Assembly (NCBI RefSeq): GCF_917563915.1
Contig: NZ_CAKJTI010000019.1
Span: 1 to 64,000, forward strand
Reading direction: 5' to 3'
Length of the DNA: 64,000 nucleotides
DNA from: Bacillus rhizoplanae
GTDB lineage: Bacteria; Bacillota; Bacilli; Bacillales; Bacillaceae_G
Part shown: positions 1-26,304 of the stretch, piece after piece
Position numbering within the stretch: position 1 is the first letter of the stretch
Layout: each line of letters opens with the position of its first letter
Program-made: the position numbers and the translations under genes
Notes under the pieces: generated by a model
Told to the model about the DNA's origin: nothing
What the model saw: the letters and a program-made list of their open reading frames with translations, nothing else
Databases searched by the model: none

Positions 1-26
1 CTTATAATCTTAAAGGAGTGAGTTGT

Positions 27-1874
27 GTGAAGTTAGAAAAAGTGATTATAAAAAACTTTCGTTAGTATGACACATATACAGAGATAAAATTTGATGATTT
101 AACGACTATTGTGGGAAAAAATGACGTAGGTAAATCAACTGTTTTGGAAGCTTTAGAGATTTTCTTTAATAATAGTACAGTAAAAATTGATGCAAAAGAT
201 TATTGTGTAAAAACAGGTAATCCTAATGTATTGATTGGATGTGTTTTTTCTGGATTTGCAGAAGAAATTATTTTAGATGAGACTGCACCTACAACTTTTA
301 AAGATGAATTTTTACTTAACGAATACGGAATGTTAGAAGTTCATAAAATATATGATTGTTCTAAAAAAACAATTAAACCAGAAATTTATTTAAAAGCATT
401 GTATCCTAATGAGGCTATAGAGAAGGATAAAGCTTTAATTCAGTTAACACAAACCGAATTGCAACGAAAAGTAAAGTCTATAGATTTAGAAAATGGACCT
501 ACAGATTTACGGACAAATCATTTAATGAGAAAAGATATTTTTAGTTCGATAGACTTAACGAATTTAGCTATTCGTCTTATAGCCTTAAATAAGGGAGATA
601 GTGGTACAGTTTGGGAAAAAATAAATCCAACGTTACCTATTTTTACTTTGTTCCAATCAGATAGACCAAGTTTAGATGGAGATTCGGAAGTTCAAGACCC
701 TATGAAAGTGGCTATAAAGGAAGCCTTGGAAGATGTTCGGGAACAATTAGAAGATATTGAGAAAATGGTTCAAGAAAAAGCGATGAATGTTGCTAACTTA
801 ACATTAGAAAAATTAAAAGAAATGGACCCTTTATTAGCAAATGAATTAACACCTAGTATCTCGGAAACCCCAAAATGGTCGAATGTATTTAAATTAACAC
901 TAGAAGGGGATGAGGGGATTCCTATAAATAAACGAGGAAGTGGAGTAAGAAGGTTAATTCTTTTGAATTTCTTTAGGGCTGCTGCTGAAAAGCAAGATAG
1001 TAGTACAGGCAGGAATATAATTTATGCAATCGAAGAACCTGAAACTGCACAACATCCGTCTAATCAAATTATGTTGGCAGAGGCATTATTGAAATTAAGT
1101 AAAAAAGAAAACACACAAGTTATATTAACAACGCATGTCCCTGCATTTTCCAGCTTATTACCAACAGATTCTTTAAGGTTAATTGTAAATACGGAACAAG
1201 GTAAAAGTATTTTAAGTTCTAATACTAATGAATCAGTATTAGAAAAAATAGCTGAAACTCTAGGTGTATTTGCATCACCTATTAGTAGAGGAGTAAAAGT
1301 GGCTGTTTTTGTTGAGGGACCTAATGATTTAAGTATACTAAAAATATTAAGTTCAATAATTGCCCGAGAAAATCCTCAAATTGTAGATTTATCTACTTCT
1401 GATGATGTAGTGATTATTCCTTGTGGAGGGGATACATTAAGAGGTTGGGTTGAAAATCAATATTTGAAACAATTGAATGTACCCGAGATACACATTTATG
1501 ATAGAGATATTGTGGAAGAGGGTAAAGAACCGAAGTATGAAAAGTGGTGTAAAAAAGTAAGGGAAAGAAATGATGGTTCGGTAGCTTATTTAACGACAAA
1601 AAGAGAGATTGAAAACTATATTCATCCAGATGCAATAAAAGAGTTTTATGGATTAACTGAATTGATGTTTGGTCCCCATGATGATGTGCCTAATTTGGTG
1701 GCTGGTCTAACTCCATATGGGGAGAGTAACGTAAAGAAGAAATTGAATAATCATGTTGCTAGACGCTTAACATATGAACAAATTAAAGAAATGGATACTG
1801 AAAATGACATTGAGGGAAAATGGCTTTTATTTATTAGTCAATGTGTTAACGGTATAGTTGTTGAAACGATTTAG
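27..1874 (+). pseudogene. OLD-family ATP-dependent nuclease, interrupted by an early in-frame stop
   Basis: OLD-family proteins join an ABC-type ATPase to a TOPRIM nuclease and mostly act in phage or plasmid defence. The natural start is GTG at 27 behind AAAGGAG (12-18). Reading from it gives MKLEKVIIKNFR, then TAG at 63-65, then YDTYTEIKFDDL leading into the Walker A motif GKNDVGKST. The rest is open for 587 codons from GTG 111. An ABC signature-like GSGVRRL, a Walker B-like YAIEEPE, a switch-like TTHVP and TOPRIM motifs VEGPND and YDRD are visible. Starting at 111 would remove the first beta strand and the residues preceding the P-loop, so function is doubtful unless the stop is read through. 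No UvrD-like helicase gene follows, so it is not an evident Gabija pair. It lies in the accessory element that interrupts comGA. Confidence 0.75.
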
Positions 1875-2098
1875 GATTAAGCCATTCTAAAACTAGATCT
1901 CCGAACCAAGTTCGTGAATATGTAATACTACCTAGTAGAAAAAATCGTTAAATATAGAAGTATGGAATATATTTCGAGTCCTTACAGTAGTATTGGCATA
2001 ATGCTGTGTGAAACCACATAAGTAAGATAAATGCATAGAAACTTGAGTACTAGAGTTTTTGGACACGGGTTCAAATCTCTTTAATATTTTACATAAGT

Positions 2099-2138
2099 CA
2101 TCCAACATCTTGAATTGAAGGTGTTGGATTTTTTTTAT
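2099..2138 (+). terminator. Rho-independent terminator
   Basis: An inverted repeat, ATCCAACATCTT pairing with AAGGTGTTGGAT around a short loop, is followed directly by a run of eight T. It is well placed to end a transcript coming from the OLD gene or from an RNA in the preceding 200 bases. Confidence 0.8.
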
Positions 2139-2789
2139 TTGAAATAAAAAAAGCGTATGTACCCTTGTAGTAAATATATAATTTAACATGGATTTTAAAT
2201 TATACATATTTTCAATCAAAACTCAACACTACTGATTGAGGCTACACAGCACCGCAATGACACAGGATTCCCTTCAATCATATGTGTCAATCAAAAACGT
2301 ATTGCTAGAACGTAGATAAGGAAGGACTGTATAATACCAATACTGGACCGTACTATATACCCTACTATCAGTGGCAAGAATACCAGTAGTAAGTGACAAG
2401 CATAGCACACAACAAGAGGCGAGGACAACAGCAAGGAAAGAACAACGAAAGAAGAACAAACAAACGAATGAAGAAAGAACGATGAACAAGTCATCAATGA
2501 ATGAGTAATAAACGAGATCAGCGAGGACGTTATGCGGTGCATTGTGACGTCCTTAATATTCTTATATATAGATACTGTACCCTATGGGGGCGACCCCCTA
2601 TAGTATGGCTGTCTACCTCTTGCTAAAAATTCGCACCAAATTTTAAAGCTGTTTCATGCACAATCACTCTAATAGCGTTCCCTGAGGCGATTAACTTTTG
2701 ATTTGTGAACAATGCCCTTACTTTCTTTGCTGTATTGCAATCTAGGAAAGGGGTGTCCTCACTGTTTGTACTGATCTTTCCATTTCGAA

Positions 2790-2819
2790 CCCCCTCAAAA
2801 AAATTGGGGGATTTTTCGG
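2790..2819 (+). terminator. Possible terminator hairpin
   Basis: CCCCC and GGGGG are separated by ten mostly A/T bases and followed by ATTTTT. The stem is short but GC-only. It sits upstream of the promoter of the small coiled-coil gene at 2888. Confidence 0.45.
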
Positions 2820-2847
2820 AAACCCTTTTCGGCACAACTGGTGTTGC

Positions 2848-2853
2848 TATAAT
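2848..2853 (+). promoter_or_regulatory. Perfect -10 box upstream of the small coiled-coil gene
   Basis: TATAAT lies 35 bases before the ATG at 2888. No good -35 match is visible at the usual spacing, so activity is uncertain. Confidence 0.4.
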
Positions 2854-2887
2854 TGTTATAAAACTTATTTTAGGAGGTCTAGCTACA

Positions 2888-3127
2888 ATGACAGAAAATG
2901 AAAAGAAAATGATTGAGAAGATATATGAAAAGGTAACAGCAATGGAGAAGAAAGTAACTAAGTTAGAGGACAGTGTAACGAAATTAGAGGGTAGTTTTAA
3001 AGGATTAAGAAAAACATACGAACAGGGCTTTAGTGATGTGCGTAATAAGTTAGATGAAATCATTGAATTAAATAACAATAGGAAATCTGCAAGGGAGATT
3101 GTTGAGGGAATCACTGGGAAGGGTTAA
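2888..3127 (+). CDS. Small coiled-coil protein of the accessory element
   Basis: This encodes 79 residues, starting at an ATG with AGGAGG (2872-2877) ten bases upstream. A longer reading frame exists upstream, but it runs through the terminator-like hairpin and has no ribosome binding site, so the short form is chosen. The protein is charged and heptad-rich (MEKKVTKLEDSVTKLEGS), with two near-repeats of a VTKLE unit, predicting a helical coiled coil with no membrane segment. Proteins of this look are common in Bacillus prophages and plasmids as hypothetical or chaperone-like proteins. No function can be assigned. It lies between the OLD gene and the end of the element at comGA. Confidence 0.65.
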   Translation: MTENEKKMIEKIYEKVTAMEKKVTKLEDSVTKLEGSFKGLRKTYEQGFSDVRNKLDEIIELNNNRKSAREIVEGITGKG

Positions 3128-3221
3128 AGCAAGTTTTAAAAATAAACTTTTAAAATAAATGTCCTATTTCAGTCCTTATTTGCAAGTACCTAACTGACAA
3201 GACAAATTCAGTGAGGTACTT

Positions 3222-3353
3222 ATGAAAATGGAGAAAGTGATAGTTAAGAAAAAGAAACCAGTTAAAATAATCGTACAAGTTTTAAACGAACCATCTAAAG
3301 AAGCAATCATAAATACAGCAAAAATTTTAAGGACTTTAGGCACTTCTGCTTAG
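3222..3353 (+). CDS. Small basic protein at the element end
   Basis: A 43-codon ORF starts at ATG 3222, with GTGAGG upstream as a modest ribosome binding site. The N-terminus is lysine-rich (VIVKKKKPVKIIVQVLNEP), followed by a helical stretch with SKEAIINTAKIL. Short proteins of this type are often found near recombinase genes in Bacillus mobile elements, but that is recollection, not a match. The 3' end of the ORF overlaps the stem of a terminator. It is the last ORF before the junction with comGA. Confidence 0.5.
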   Translation: MKMEKVIVKKKKPVKIIVQVLNEPSKEAIINTAKILRTLGTSA

Positions 3354-3366
3354 AGTCCTTTTTTTA
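3327..3366 (+). terminator. Terminator at the end of the accessory element
   Basis: AGGACTTTAGGC pairs with GCTTAGAGTCCT (two wobble pairs) across a six-base loop, followed by seven T. It overlaps the stop codon region of the small ORF at 3222 and would shield the comG side from transcription out of the element. Confidence 0.75.
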
Positions 3367-3396
3367 TTTCAAAGATTCTACCTAAAAACTTAACAA

Positions 3397-4005
3397 ACTG
3401 GGTCAGGAAAAACAACAACGATGTATGCTCTTTTAGAAGTAGCGAAGAAGGAACAGACTCGCCGGATTGTTACGCTTGAAGATCCAGTTGAAAAGAAAAA
3501 GGACGGGTTATTACAAATTCAAATTAATGAAAAAGCTGGTATTACGTATGCAACTGGATTAAAAGCAATTTTACGTCATGACCCGGATATTATTTTAGTA
3601 GGAGAAATTCGAGATGAAGAAACGGCAAAGGTGGCGGTTCGAGCAAGTTTAACAGGCCATTTAGTTATGACGACATTGCATACAAATGATGCGAAGAGTG
3701 CAGTATTGCGCTTAATGGATTATGGTATTACCCTTCAAGAAATTGAACAGTCGTTATTAGCAGTAGCGGCACAACGACTAGTGGAATTGAAATGTCCATT
3801 TTGCAAAGGAAATTGCTCACCGTTATGTAAAGAAATGCGTCATGTACACCGAGCGAGCATTTATGAATTATTGTACGGTTATGAACTGAAAGAAGTAATT
3901 CGAGAAGCGAATGGAAAACAAGCGATGTACCAATATACAACGCTTCAAGATGAATTAAGAAAAGGATATGCACTAGGGTTTATTGAAGAAGATGTCTATG
4001 TTTAA
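3397..4005 (+). pseudogene. comGA: comGA, 3' part only (competence ATPase), cut at the Walker A motif
   Basis: ComGA is the GspE/PilB-type ATPase that drives assembly of the competence pseudopilus at the inner face of the membrane. The readable frame begins with TGSGKTTTMYALLEV, the P-loop. It continues through LEDPVE, the Asp-box region RHDPDIILVGEIRDEETA, the His-box TTLHTND and a metal-binding-like CPFCKGNC. The codon before TGSGK is CAA, preceded by an in-frame TAA at 3391, so the N-terminal half (about 140 residues in other Bacillus) is not contiguous. Everything left of here looks like a mobile element, so comGA is split by an insertion. The 5' half is presumably beyond the left window edge. 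Excision of the element could restore the gene. Confidence 0.9.
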
Positions 4006-5032
4006 ACATGAGAGATGGCGGTTACATGAACAAGCTTTATTGCTGCGAAGGCTTGGCGAGCTCTTAGAGAAAGGGTATTCTTTATTACATGCATTAGAAT
4101 TTCTTCATTTCCACTTAAATCCCCATAAACAAATACAGCTTCAAGATGCTGCTGAAGAATTTAAAAAAGGAAGTAGCCTGCATGATGTGTTTTATAAACT
4201 TGCATTTCACCCAGACATTTTAAGTTATTTATTTTATGCAGAGCAGCATGGTGACATTTCCTTTGCATTGCAACAAGGAAGCTCACTACTCAGCAGAAAA
4301 GATAAACATCAAAAAAATATGATGAAGGTATTGCGTTATCCACTTTTTCTTTCCTTGTTTCTATTAGGAATCCTTCTCGTATTTAATATGGTTCTTCTTC
4401 CGCAGTTTTCAACTTTATATGGTTCACTTCGCGGGTCTTCTTCTTCGTTTACAGACGATATTTTAACGTTTATTCAAGTGCTTCCGTATGTGATGGGTGG
4501 AGTTGCTTTGGCAATTGGTATTGCAGTGCTTATATACATGGTGTATGTAAAGAGGTTGCACCCAGTTAGGAGAATGAATATTTTTATACGAATGCCTCTT
4601 ATAAAACAGTTTTTTATGTTAACAAACTCACACTATTTTGCAATCCAATTAAGTGGCCTTTTGCAAGGCGGGTTATCTATACTAGAAGCGCTCACATTAA
4701 TGAAAGAACAAAAGCATCATCCATTTTTTCAATGCGAAGCTCTCGAAATACAGAAATTATTAACGATAGGCGAACATCTTGATTTCATTATGATGAATCG
4801 GCCTTACTACGAACGGGAGCTTTCTTATATTATTAAACATGGACAAGCAAATGGGAATTTAGCAGCTGAGCTGGCCGATTATAGTGAGATGACAATAGAA
4901 AAGATGGAAGAGAAAATTAATCGTATTTTATTTGTTGTGCAACCTCTTTTATTTGCATGTATCGGAATGGTTGTTATTCTTATGTATTTGGCGATGATTA
5001 TGCCGATGTTTCAAATGATGGATTCTATTTAG
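3983..5032 (+). CDS. comGB: ComGB, competence pseudopilus membrane platform protein
   Basis: This is a GspF/PilC-family polytopic inner-membrane protein, the platform for the ComG pseudopilus used in DNA uptake. It has about 349 residues. The N-terminal cytoplasmic part includes LLRRLGELLEKGYSLLHALEF; a hydrophobic segment lies near residues 120-145, another near 170-190, and a C-terminal one with LFACIGMVVILMYLAMI. It overlaps the 3' end of comGA. The start is TTG 3983 or ATG 3992, both with weak ribosome binding sites. With comGA split, its translation must depend on another promoter or on excision of the upstream element. Confidence 0.92.
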   Translation: MKKMSMFKHERWRLHEQALLLRRLGELLEKGYSLLHALEFLHFHLNPHKQIQLQDAAEEFKKGSSLHDVFYKLAFHPDILSYLFYAEQHGDISFALQQGSSLLSRKDKHQKNMMKVLRYPLFLSLFLLGILLVFNMVLLPQFSTLYGSLRGSSSSFTDDILTFIQVLPYVMGGVALAIGIAVLIYMVYVKRLHPVRRMNIFIRMPLIKQFFMLTNSHYFAIQLSGLLQGGLSILEALTLMKEQKHHPFFQCEALEIQKLLTIGEHLDFIMMNRPYYERELSYIIKHGQANGNLAAELADYSEMTIEKMEEKINRILFVVQPLLFACIGMVVILMYLAMIMPMFQMMDSI

Positions 5033-5044
5033 GAGGCTTGTTCT

Positions 5045-5350
5045 GTGAAAAACGAAAAAGGCTTTACGTTGTTAGAAATGTTGCTTGTTATGCTTGTGAT
5101 TTCTGTTTTGCTGCTTCTTATTATTCCAAATGTAGTAAAACAGCGCTCTTCTGTACAAGGAAAGGGATGCGATGCCTTTGTAAAGTCTGTTGAAGCGCAA
5201 GTACAAGCGTATCAATTAGAATATAATAAAATCCCAACAGTAGACGAGTTATACGATGGTAAATATATTACATCTAAAACTTGTCCAAAAGGTGAGAGTA
5301 TTACAATTAATGCGACAGATGGGGAAGTTACAGTTGCAGGGAAATCGTGA
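5045..5350 (+). CDS. comGC: ComGC, major competence pseudopilin
   Basis: This is the major type IV pilin-like subunit, processed by the prepilin peptidase ComC. It has 101 residues, with a GTG start behind AGGAGG. The type III signal is clear: a short basic leader, cleavage between Gly6 and Phe7 (KGFTLLEM), Glu at mature position 5, then a hydrophobic helix. Two Cys residues in the mature part are placed to form the known intramolecular disulfide. It lies 12 bases after comGB and overlaps comGD. Confidence 0.95.
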   Translation: MKNEKGFTLLEMLLVMLVISVLLLLIIPNVVKQRSSVQGKGCDAFVKSVEAQVQAYQLEYNKIPTVDELYDGKYITSKTCPKGESITINATDGEVTVAGKS

Positions 5351-5781
5351 AGAAAAATGGCTTTACGTTATTAGAAATGCTCATCGTATTAAGTGCTATC
5401 TCTATATTAAGTGTTGTAACATACTTTAATCTATCCTCAATATATGAAAAACAAAAAATTGATCAGTTTATGAATCAATTTTCTCAAGACATCCTTTTTA
5501 TGCAGCAAGCAGCGATAAGCCATCGAAATCGTCATATGTTACGATGGTTTCCTAATCAGGCAAAGTATAGCGTTACATCTTCAGGAGAAACAGATCCTGT
5601 TCTTGTTCGTTACTATTCATCTGACATACAGGTGAACCTAAATACGTTTCCAAATCCAATGACTTACGGTGCTGATGGAAATATTAATAGAGGCGGCACA
5701 ATTATTGTTTCTTATAAAACAAAAACGTATTATATCGTATTTCAGCTTGGGAGAGGAAGATTTACGTATTATGAAGTGTGA
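5347..5781 (+). CDS. comGD: ComGD, minor pseudopilin
   Basis: A minor pseudopilin of the competence machinery, 144 residues, starting at GTG 5347 within the last codon of comGC. The leader MKKNG is followed by FTLLEML with Glu5 and a hydrophobic N-terminal helix. The globular part has QQAAISHRNRH, resembling the GspH class. It is translationally coupled to comGC and overlaps comGE. Confidence 0.92.
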   Translation: MKKNGFTLLEMLIVLSAISILSVVTYFNLSSIYEKQKIDQFMNQFSQDILFMQQAAISHRNRHMLRWFPNQAKYSVTSSGETDPVLVRYYSSDIQVNLNTFPNPMTYGADGNINRGGTIIVSYKTKTYYIVFQLGRGRFTYYEV

Positions 5782-6088
5782 AAAGGGTTCTGTTATGCTG
5801 GAGATTCTTGTGTCCCTTAGTTTACTAATGATGACGGTCTCACTCTTGCTTCCGCAAACACTTCTCATTATGCAAGAACGAAAAAATATTCAACTTCGGT
5901 ACAAAGCACAGCTATTCTTAAAAGAAGCAGCGGCCGCATATATGTATCATCATGTAATTTCACCAGTAATAGAAAAACAATATGAGAATGTAACGTATAG
6001 AATTCAATGGCAGGATGAAAAGGTATGTGTACGATGGAAAGATATGAAACGACGAGAAATTGAACGGTGTCGCTATGTTAAAAAATAG
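5771..6088 (+). CDS. comGE: ComGE, minor pseudopilin
   Basis: 105 residues from ATG 5771, overlapping the end of comGD. The leader MKCEKG is followed by SVMLEILVSL, with Glu at mature position 5 and a hydrophobic helix. A longer frame starting at 5669 is open upstream, but it lies inside comGD and has no ribosome binding site, so the ATG at 5771 is chosen. Position and size match ComGE of other Bacillus. Confidence 0.85.
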   Translation: MKCEKGSVMLEILVSLSLLMMTVSLLLPQTLLIMQERKNIQLRYKAQLFLKEAAAAYMYHHVISPVIEKQYENVTYRIQWQDEKVCVRWKDMKRREIERCRYVKK

Positions 6089-6521
6089 CAAAAAAGAAAA
6101 GGGATTTACGTTGTTAGAAGTTATGATGTGCTTTCTATTGTTATCGGTATTCTTTCTTCTTCTACCTCGTCTTCACGTATTATTTATAGAAACTCCATAC
6201 TCTAAACAAGTTACGAATTGGGAATGGAATATTTTTTTAGAGCAAGTACAAATTGAGTTTCGAGAAGTAGAGGAAGGAAATAATGGCGACGGAAAATTAT
6301 TTTTGAAAACAAAGACAGGAGAACGTATTACGTATGTTATGTCTGGAAATAATGTTGTTCGAAAAGTAAATGGGGCGGGACATGAAGTTCTTTTGCAAAA
6401 AGTAGAGAATATTTCTTATGAATTAACAGCGCATACATTGATAATACGCGTGCAGGATATAAGTGGTAAGGTATATGATGGTGTTGTTACTCGTTATTCT
6501 GCTATTGAGGTGAATAGATGA
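6075..6521 (+). CDS. comGF: ComGF, minor pseudopilin
   Basis: 148 residues. ATG 6075 gives the leader MLKNSKKEKG followed by FTLLEVM, a canonical prepilin site with Glu5. An upstream ATG at 6060 is also in frame. The hydrophobic helix CFLLLSVFFLLLP follows. It overlaps comGE and ends four bases into comGG. Confidence 0.9.
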   Translation: MLKNSKKEKGFTLLEVMMCFLLLSVFFLLLPRLHVLFIETPYSKQVTNWEWNIFLEQVQIEFREVEEGNNGDGKLFLKTKTGERITYVMSGNNVVRKVNGAGHEVLLQKVENISYELTAHTLIIRVQDISGKVYDGVVTRYSAIEVNR

Positions 6522-6895
6522 GATCAGAAAGTGGATTTACAATGCCAGGAACGATTATTCTCATATTGTTGCTCATGTCTTTCTTTGTATATGAGACAAA
6601 TATATTCTTATCAGATCAAAAGTTTTATGCAGAAGCAGAAGAATTATTTATATTAGAAGAAATAGTGGATCAAGCTATTGCAGAACTGAAACAAGAGTTA
6701 AAAACTGGAATGGAAAAAAGGGCATTTTTTTATACGTATGAAAAAGGGGAAGCGAAGGGAGATTACACAATAGTAGATGGGGATGCTTTTATTACTTTGC
6801 AGTGTATAACGAAACGAAAGCTCACATATAAAGTGAGCTTTCGTTATAATACAAATAACGAAGCGATTACGAATTGGCAAGAGGAGAGGTTATAG
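6518..6895 (+). CDS. comGG: ComGG, minor pseudopilin
   Basis: 125 residues from ATG 6518, overlapping comGF by four bases. The N-terminus is MRSESG then FTMPG and a hydrophobic stretch. As in B. subtilis ComGG, the conserved Glu5 of pseudopilins is absent. It is the last gene of the comG operon and is followed by aroK after a single base. Confidence 0.85.
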
Positions 6896-25014: not shown

Positions 25015-26304
25015 CGTGAATAACCCCTCCTTATCCACCTTCCGGTCTGATTGAAGAAGGGACTTCCCGCTTCATAGACTGTTGCATAGTGGGGTGTCCC
25101 ACTGCGTCTTACACAGTCTCCACAGGCGAAGATTATACTGTTCGGACATAACCCTGCCCTACAGTTTGTAGACTTTAGTTTGTGGCAAACAATTCTTCTA
25201 ATCCTTTTTGTAAGCAAGCATGTTTCGAATGTTTAGATTTTCTACAACGATAACGGAATACTCTTTCGCTAGATTGTAACTGAGTTTATGAAGAAAATCT
25301 CTGCGCTGGTTCGCTACTTTTTCATGTAGCTTGCGAACAAGCTCGACTTGCTTTATGAAGTTAGCAGAACCTTTTTTCTTCCTAGAAAGTTTTCGCTGTG
25401 CTTTCTTTAGTTGTTTTTCTTTTTCACGGAGAAATCTAGGGTTTTCAAACTCTGAACCATTAGAAAGAACGGCATACTTATGTAATCCCACGTCAATTCC
25501 TATCGCACAATTGGTATCGATACCAGATGGAACCACTTGTCTTTCGACACAGAAAATAGCGTACCATCTTTTCCCTTGACGTTTGAGAATCAGTTGCTTG
25601 ATTGTTCCTTCGAGTGGTCTGTGAAGGATGATATCTATTTCTCCCAGCTTTGTATTGTATAATTTACCATTATCAGAAAAAGACATAGCATAGCGATGCT
25701 TTCCATTTCGTTTGAACCCAAATTGCGGAAATGTCATACTCGTGTAGTCTTTATACTTTTTCTGTTTTGGATACTTTGCATCTTTACGAAAGAAATTATC
25801 AAACGCTTTTTTCAGACGCGCAAAAACTTCTTGTAGCGGCTGAGAAGGCATTTCTTTTAGAAAAGGATACGTATTCTTGTCCAATGTAAGTTGTCTTTGC
25901 ATATCATAACGATTGTAATTTTCTTTATTTTGCTTATATTTCCGTTCTTTGTCTAGCAAGGCAGAATTATAGGTTTGACGACAATATTGTAGCCAACGGT
26001 CTAACACTTCTTTTTGCGCTTCTGTTGGAAAGATTTCATATTTTTGATTCAACAACATTGTCATCACCTCCCATTCGTTTTGTCCTTGTGCTTCGGTATT
26101 GTTTTAGAATTTCTAATGGTGCACTGCCTACAGCCAGCAAACAATAACTTTGAGATCAAAAGTATTCTTTCTATAATTTCTGTCTCATTTGAGGAAATTC
26201 CTTTTTCATTCCGTTGGCTTACGCCAACCAAAATTCATCCCCTCCCTACTCATTGGGCTTCACCCTTCTTATTCCTTGAGGAAGGGGAATTCTTTTGGAA
26301 GTAT
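25015..26304 (-). mobile_element. IS200/IS605-group element of IS1341 type (tnpB only), decayed
   Basis: It interrupts splB between codons ACG (25012-25014) and GTT (26305-26307) without a target duplication, as expected for IS200/IS605 elements. It carries a truncated tnpB on the minus strand and no tnpA. GC-richer, hairpin-forming sequence lies at the low-coordinate (right) end, where the omega RNA would be encoded, and at the left end near 26255-26290. Boundaries are inferred from the splB reading frame and may be off by a few bases. Confidence 0.8.
25198..26058 (-). pseudogene. tnpB: tnpB, C-terminally truncated RNA-guided nuclease
   Basis: About 286 residues from ATG 26058 behind GGGAGGTG. 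The N-terminal part has MLLNQKYEIFPTEAQ; RuvC-I is AIGIDVGLHKYAV with the catalytic Asp; RuvC-II is VIVVENLNIRNML with the catalytic Glu. The frame then stops after AYKKD, so the zinc ribbon and the RuvC-III Asp are lost. A fragment downstream in another frame (ACGDCVRR, YEAGSPFFNQTGR) resembles what lies after the zinc ribbon in full-length relatives, implying an internal deletion of about 70 or more codons. It should be inactive as a nuclease, but might still bind RNA. Confidence 0.85.

What the first reader, a model, noticed from the sequence alone, without database searches (positions are those of the whole stretch)
1..3420. Accessory element inserted in the Walker A codons of comGA
The comGA frame starts abruptly at TGSGKTTT, with a stop codon two codons upstream. 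Everything to the left (OLD nuclease, small coiled-coil gene, T-poor non-coding stretch) is foreign to the Bacillus comG locus. Insertion at the P-loop uses a sequence conserved by protein function, a strategy known for elements in comK, comM or radC. It would switch off DNA uptake, and precise excision would restore it, so it could be a regulated switch. The likely core is within 3397-3420.
Basis: partly seen in the sequence, partly recalled or inferred. Interest (0 to 1): 0.75.

Follow-up and report, generated by a model that had tools for sequence, protein, structure and literature searches.

The report
Defence-gene element inserted in comGA
A mobile DNA element that carries anti-phage-like genes appears to sit in the ATP-binding codons of comGA, a gene needed for DNA uptake, and relatives of it sit at the same two bases in several other Bacillales genomes.

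Summary
In detail: the comGA frame begins at TGSGKTTT (3397), TAA at 3391-3393. The left side is the right end of an integrative element whose left end lies outside the window. Four relatives with both junctions sit at the same codon: G129 (13.0 kb), G259 (11.3), G365 (10.2), G199 (17.7). Each has a comGA 5' half ending FTGPT, then an SprA-like large serine integrase, cargo, an attP arm and the comGA 3' part. G120 shows a left junction with a broken integrase, plus an intact comGA elsewhere. Arm symmetry places the crossover at the AC of the Thr codon in GP-T-GSGKT. The window shares the right arm, terminator and a 43-aa ORF with most relatives. In G383 a prophage with a phi105-like integrase uses the same AC. 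Cargo differs and is mostly defence-like. A counter-case: an 87% identical integrase (L117) is not in comGA. The window's own integrase and comGA 5' half are not visible; excision is untested. Prophages in competence genes are known, one in comGA (PMC7029219); this element family was not found in the paper searches made.

The parts
1..3396 (+). Right part of the integrative element; the left boundary is outside the window
   Evidence: Right end shared with G129, G365, G259; for the missing genome
27..1874 (+). Cargo: AAA_15 ATPase resembling OLD/AriA/GajA proteins; in-frame TAG at 63-65, open part 111-1874
   Evidence: Pfam AAA_15 E 2e-58; PADLOC AriA E 8e-49, GajA 1e-19, Old 5e-19; relatives up to 56% in 12 of 397 genomes at E 1e-60; stop seen
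2376..2525 (+). T-poor, unstructured stretch (14 T in 150 bases)
   Evidence: fold z +1.3 for 2380-2525
2570..2615 (+). Inverted repeat around GGGGGCGACCCCC
   Evidence: z -2.5; 5 of 200 shuffles fold as well
2888..3127 (+). 79-aa coiled-coil-like ORF, no relative found in 397 genomes
3222..3353 (+). 43-aa right-end ORF shared with G129, G365, G259 and G401; guessed directionality factor
3329..3368 (+). Intrinsic terminator overlapping the end of the 43-aa ORF
   Evidence: 14-pair stem 3329-3360 and T-run, z -5.6
3371..3396 (+). Element arm of the right junction (attP half-site); contains the TAA 3391-3393 in the comGA frame
   Evidence: 18 of 24 identities to the G129 and G259 right arms
3397..3398 (+). 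Inferred crossover dinucleotide AC, first two bases of the Thr codon before GSGK
   Evidence: Mapped by arm symmetry in five relatives with both junctions; applied to the window by alignment
3397..4005 (+). comGA 3' part (TGSGKTTT to stop)
3983..6895 (+). Rest of the comG operon by gene order (comGB to comGG; names by order and recall)
   Evidence: Open frames; only comGA was tested by a family search

Best explanation
Bases 1-3396 are the right part of an integrative, defence-carrying element of a family that inserts by an SprA-like (SPbeta YokA-type) large serine integrase at the AC of the Thr codon in the comGA Walker A motif (GP-T-GSGKT). Seen in relatives: the integrase gene directly behind the comGA 5' half on the same strand, imperfectly symmetric element arms on both sides of a shared AC, and the comGA 3' part resuming there. 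Seen in the window: the matching right arm, terminator, right-end ORF and comGA 3' part. Inferred: the integrase and comGA 5' half lie just left of the window; ComGA does not work and uptake is off while the element is in place; exact excision would rebuild the frame because both junctions share the AC.
For: Same right-end ORF and terminator before the same comGA codon in G129, G365 and G259. comGA 5' half plus integrase at the left end in 5 of the 6 genomes with an integrase at 58% identity or more. Symmetry peaks at the AC in 5 of 5 genomes with both junctions, 13-18 of 26 against at most 12 elsewhere. Window arm 18 of 24 to two relatives, 0 of 3342 other positions as good. Right-end ORF blastp E about 1e-14 to G401 and G365. 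SprA is the closest solved relative of the integrase, E 7e-31.
Against: The window shows one junction only and no integrase. The window arm is near chance against the G199 arms, the G120 arm and one G259 arm, 11-12 of 24. L117 has an 87% identical integrase and the right-end ORF but is not in comGA, and its two ends do not show the same dinucleotide when aligned by eye. In G199 several bases besides AC are shared. G199 lacks the right-end ORF and a significant T-poor stretch. The nearest family has uninterrupted comGA in 19 of 19 genomes.
Confidence: 0.85

Rival explanations
1. The same kind of element, but now a fixed remnant: the left part with the integrase, or the comGA 5' half, has been lost or has decayed, so the insertion cannot leave and comGA is permanently inactive.
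For: The cargo ATPase carries an in-frame TAG. Decay occurs in the family: G120 has a broken integrase and G156 a 3' fragment. G259's comGA 3' part is broken a second time.
Against: The window's right arm, terminator, right-end ORF and comGA 3' part are all intact.
Confidence: 0.35
2. A prophage rather than a small non-phage element, as in G383 or SpST71A: the visible 3.4 kb would be the cargo end of a larger phage.
For: Prophages do use comGA (PMC7029219) and even this codon (G383). The left end of the window's element is unseen.
Against: The right end matches the 10-13 kb elements. No phage structural family was named among the proteins scanned from those elements, though not every ORF was scanned.
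Confidence: 0.08
3. An assembly join or simple deletion that places unrelated DNA against comGA.
For: The window alone shows only one side of the junction.
Against: Separate assemblies have the same element end at the same codon.
Confidence: 0.02

Closest known systems
SpST71A prophage in comGA of Staphylococcus pseudintermedius (PMC7029219, passages read)
   Same: Interrupts the same gene and should abolish the comG pilus motor
   Different: About 44.3-kb prophage; the contig holding its published integrase primer (L127) encodes a tyrosine-type integrase (Pfam Phage_integrase). ORF split 509/479 bp; the exact codon was not readable here
Prophages and elements in comK, comYC, comFA, comM and radC (PMC4774983, passages read); prophage in comGC of Macrococcus (PMC6008420, passages read)
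   Same: Mobile DNA in a transformation gene
   Different: Other genes; mostly prophages; no such defence-cargo family described in the passages seen
gin element in gerE of Bacillus cereus ATCC10987 (PMC5595907, passages read)
   Same: Non-prophage element inside a gene, serine recombinase plus a small excision factor
   Different: Sporulation gene, excision shown by experiment; here excision is untested
G383 prophage at the same comGA codon (this work)
   Same: Same AC in the same codon
   Different: Integrase 45-47% identical to AP45, A9Y, rho14 and phi105, on the opposite strand; 35.7 kb with head, tail and lysis genes; no shared right-end ORF
SPbeta integrase SprA (YokA), PDB 9dxh
   Same: Closest solved relative of the element integrase
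   Different: SPbeta-type phage integrases are only 33-36% identical over 61-69% of the query

Membership tests
comGA P-loop elements with SprA-like integrase (group defined here) | comGA 3' part resumes at the AC of the Thr codon before GSGK | tested here: met
comGA P-loop elements with SprA-like integrase (group defined here) | Right arm resembling the group's attP half-site | tested here: met
   18 of 24 to G129 and G259, 14 to G365, 12 (near chance) to G199
comGA P-loop elements with SprA-like integrase (group defined here) | Right-end 40-43 aa ORF with overlapping terminator | tested here: met
   absent from G199, so not universal
comGA P-loop elements with SprA-like integrase (group defined here) | SprA-like integrase directly behind the comGA 5' half | not testable with these tools
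   Left end outside the window and no genome held
Prophage | Phage structural genes | tested here: inconclusive
   None named at E 1e-3 for the window proteins scanned except weak coiled-coil-type matches above that, but only 3.4 kb is visible
Programmed gene-intervening element (skin, gin type) | Programmed excision that restores the gene when it is needed | not testable with these tools
   Needs expression and excision assays; ComK-box check: G129 14/16 (13 of 500 shuffles), G365 11 (151), G199 12 (173), G259 10 (479); intact control G001 15 (1)

The most novel reading that the evidence does not exclude
The Walker A codons of comGA are a shared docking site for at least two distinct serine integrase lineages that cross over at the same two bases, and the SprA-like lineage spreads defence genes between bacterial families through it. 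Because the integrase gene lies directly behind the comGA 5' half on the same strand, read-through from the comG promoter would raise the integrase when cells become competent, with the right-end 43-aa protein as directionality factor, so that the element works as a reversible competence switch.
Probability: 0.12. Interest if true: 0.85.

Novelty: new variant of a known kind. Interest (0 to 1): 0.62.

Why it matters
Mobile elements are thought to break transformation because transformation can delete them (argued in PMC4774983, passages read). Here small elements loaded with different anti-phage-like systems share one precise site in the motor of the DNA-uptake pilus, and a prophage with another integrase lineage uses the same two bases. 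If this holds, gaining a defence island and losing DNA uptake come in one step, which is directly testable. Codons kept by protein function would explain how one integrase lineage can serve hosts of several families. Integrases with a mapped crossover may also be useful tools.

Tried and rejected
Window against named collections: no DNA match for 1-3420 in plasmids or phages, nor for 3391-6891 in plasmids. The cargo ATPase has only relatives below 60% identity on plasmids (375 records) and none confirmed in viral contigs. The comGA 3' part found no viral contig, and patterns from the junction and the terminator found none. The right end in phages gave 27 short weak matches. The coiled-coil ORF found nothing in plasmids or in 397 genomes.

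Plasmid matches to the right end (16 records, 7-8% of the query) were judged chance: in the two I opened the match lies antisense inside an annotated gene beside transfer genes; the other 14 were not opened.

G061, flagged by a short open frame, is not an insertion: its comGA pieces overlap in two frames. The 43-aa ORF matches nothing in Pfam, PHROGs, PADLOC or NCBIfam or in phages, and only a chance-level row at E 2.1 in PDB. Its role as a directionality factor is a guess from place and co-occurrence; it was not compared with SprB or GirX. A class-wide draw of 309 genomes gave no integrase at E 1e-80. Competence control through ComK boxes was not supported outside G129. The second break in G259's comGA showed no recombinase that I could recognise by eye in 1.5 kb at each end.
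Full report
WHAT IS IN THE WINDOW. The comGA frame lacks its first half. TAA stands at 3391-3393, then CAA, then TGSGK from 3397, open to 4005. The NCBIfam ComGA model is matched from position 145 of 267. Intact relatives read FTGPTGSGKTTT here (6 of 10 loci given printed a frame, 5 distinct places). The following comG frames are open. Left of the junction lie an AAA_15 ATPase resembling AriA, GajA and OLD proteins with an in-frame TAG near its start, a T-poor stretch (14 T in 150 bases, 0 of 300 block shuffles as low, chromosomal segments 22-26), a coiled-coil-like ORF, a 43-aa ORF and a strong terminator. No call identified the host. I take it to be a Bacillus near the cereus group from recall only. 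No genome is held for it. The best ComGA relative in genome contigs is 74% identical, and comGA is uninterrupted in 19 of 19 genomes of that relative's family.

RELATIVES AT THE SAME CODON. The comGA 3' part matched in 397 of 397 Bacillales genomes; the list of matches was cut off, so interrupted copies cannot be counted from it. Among the rows shown four had notably short open frames: G129, G383, G365, G061. All four were fetched. Three are interrupted at exactly the window's codon. G061 is not; its pieces overlap in two frames. In G129 and G365 the sequence before TGSGK ends in the same small ORF and terminator as in the window. The comGA 5' half lies upstream in G129, G383 and G365 and ends in FTGPT, about 13.0, 35.7 and 10.2 kb away.

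THE INTEGRASE. Behind the comGA 5' half of G129 and G365, on the same strand, lies a large serine integrase with Pfam Resolvase and Recombinase domains. Its closest solved relative is SPbeta SprA (E 7e-31). In the same 397 genomes 9 match it at E 1e-60 or better. Six are at 58% identity or more: G129 (the query's own), G259 (75%), G365 (73%), G199 (58%), G120 (60%, one stop) and G156 (73%, a 3' fragment with a stop). In five of the six the gene lies directly behind a comGA 5' half. The G156 fragment does not, and G156 has an uninterrupted comGA. The three at 34-36% are not at comGA. Family searches gave 2 of 16, 1 of 36 and 1 of 18 genomes, all seen before; they also show that G129, G365 and G259 belong to different families. 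A class-wide draw gave 0 of 309. G120 also holds an uninterrupted comGA on another contig, 89.6% identical to its 5' half over 540 bases. One viral contig (L117, in G401) has an 87% identical integrase and the right-end ORF but is not in comGA. By eye its ends show AC and TA at the aligned centre, which I cannot explain.

THE SITE. I compared the element arm at the right junction with the reverse complement of the arm at the left junction for offsets from -8 to +8. In all five genomes with both junctions (G129, G365, G259, G199, G383) the best symmetry is at the same place: 18, 18, 14, 13 and 18 of 26, against at most 12 at any other offset. There both junctions carry AC, the first two bases of the Thr codon before GSGK. 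In G199 more bases than AC are shared, so there only the symmetry decides. G383 is a prophage with head, tail and lysis genes and a different integrase, 45-47% identical to phi105 and kin, on the other strand, yet it uses the same AC. The window's arm matches the G129 and G259 right arms at 18 of 24 and the G129 left arm at 17; none of 3342 other window positions does as well. Against the G365 arms it scores 14 and 15 (5 and 1 of 3342 as good). Against the G199 arms, the G120 arm and the G259 left arm it is near chance, 11-12.

OTHER SHARED FEATURES. The four open integrases at comGA (G129, G365, G259, G199) have TTGAGN, 17 bases, TATAAT just inside the element, and the TGA in that -35 box also ends the comGA 5' frame (read from the sequences; in G129 the script reported a neighbouring match and I read the box by eye). 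G120 lacks it. The right-end ORF is in the window, G129, G365, G259 and G401, 60-73% identical to the window, and not in G199. It goes with the integrases of 73% and more. Its pooled pN/pS is 0.40 over 28 codons, pairs 0.26-0.80, but its last codons also form the terminator, so this is weak evidence for protein selection. The T-poor stretch is strong in the window, G129, G259 and G401 (0 of 300 shuffles), weaker in G365 (2 of 300), not significant in G199 (19 of 300).

CARGO. It differs in each element: type III restriction-modification in G129, a C5 methylase with type II enzyme and Vsr in G259, a type II system in G401, an MrcB_N-HNH protein with a GHKL-type ATPase in G365 (weak PADLOC scores), pPIWI-associated nuclease, AbiC-like and HNH proteins in G199 by Pfam (the one G199 protein given to PADLOC matched nothing), and the OLD/AriA-like ATPase in the window. 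No phage structural family was named among the proteins scanned from these elements, but I did not scan every ORF.

HOW IT LIKELY WORKS. The integrase recombines attP with comGA at the AC; this rests on junction anatomy, not on an experiment. ComGA is then split before its ATP-binding loop, and a terminator stands just before the junction, so DNA uptake should be off (inferred). Both halves are otherwise open in G129, G365 and G199; G259's 3' part is broken again. Whether and when excision happens is unknown. A ComK-box pair upstream of comGA was clear in the intact control (1 of 500 shuffles), suggestive in G129 (13 of 500) and not above chance in G365, G259 and G199.

WHAT IS KNOWN. Described in the passages I read: elements in comK, comYC, comFA, comM and radC (PMC4774983), a prophage in comGC of Macrococcus (PMC6008420), and the 44.3-kb prophage SpST71A in comGA of Staphylococcus pseudintermedius (PMC7029219). 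The contig holding the latter's published integrase primer encodes a tyrosine-type integrase; its exact insertion codon could not be read. The gin element in gerE (PMC5595907) is the nearest non-prophage analogue of working style. Searches for comGA with serine integrase and for six phrases on interrupted comGA gave 0 papers. In some searches I saw the 20 listed titles and abstract starts of 24, 36, 113 and 80 papers and none described this family. The library lacks preprints and most subscription journals.

VERDICT. I rate it a new variant of a known kind.

Noticed in passing
G383: L112 and L140 (left end), L108 (right end): A prophage with a phi105-like serine integrase sits at the same AC of the comGA P-loop as the SprA-like elements.
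   Followed up: yes
L139 (G120:C14) and L129 (G120:C6): G120 has a comGA 5' half with a broken integrase on one contig and an uninterrupted comGA on another, 89.6% identical over 540 bases.
   Followed up: partly
L131 and L134 (G259:C4, about 39.6-71.7 kb): G259's comGA 3' part is broken a second time, about 110 residues past the P-loop, with some 32 kb between the pieces.
   Followed up: partly
L117 820-11600 (G401): An 87% identical integrase with the same right-end ORF sits outside comGA, and its two ends do not show the same central dinucleotide.
   Followed up: partly
window 2376-2525; L107, L137, L117: A T-poor stretch of about 150 bases on the comGA-sense strand recurs in several of the elements; its role is unknown.
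   Followed up: partly
window 63-65: In-frame TAG near the start of the cargo ATPase; open homologues exist in other genomes.
   Followed up: partly
window 25198-26067: A TnpB-like ORF by eye on the minus strand of the chromosomal part; no family search was run on it.
   Followed up: no
L124 (G079): A 36% identical integrase lies just behind what looks by eye like the end of a dipicolinate synthase gene.
   Followed up: no
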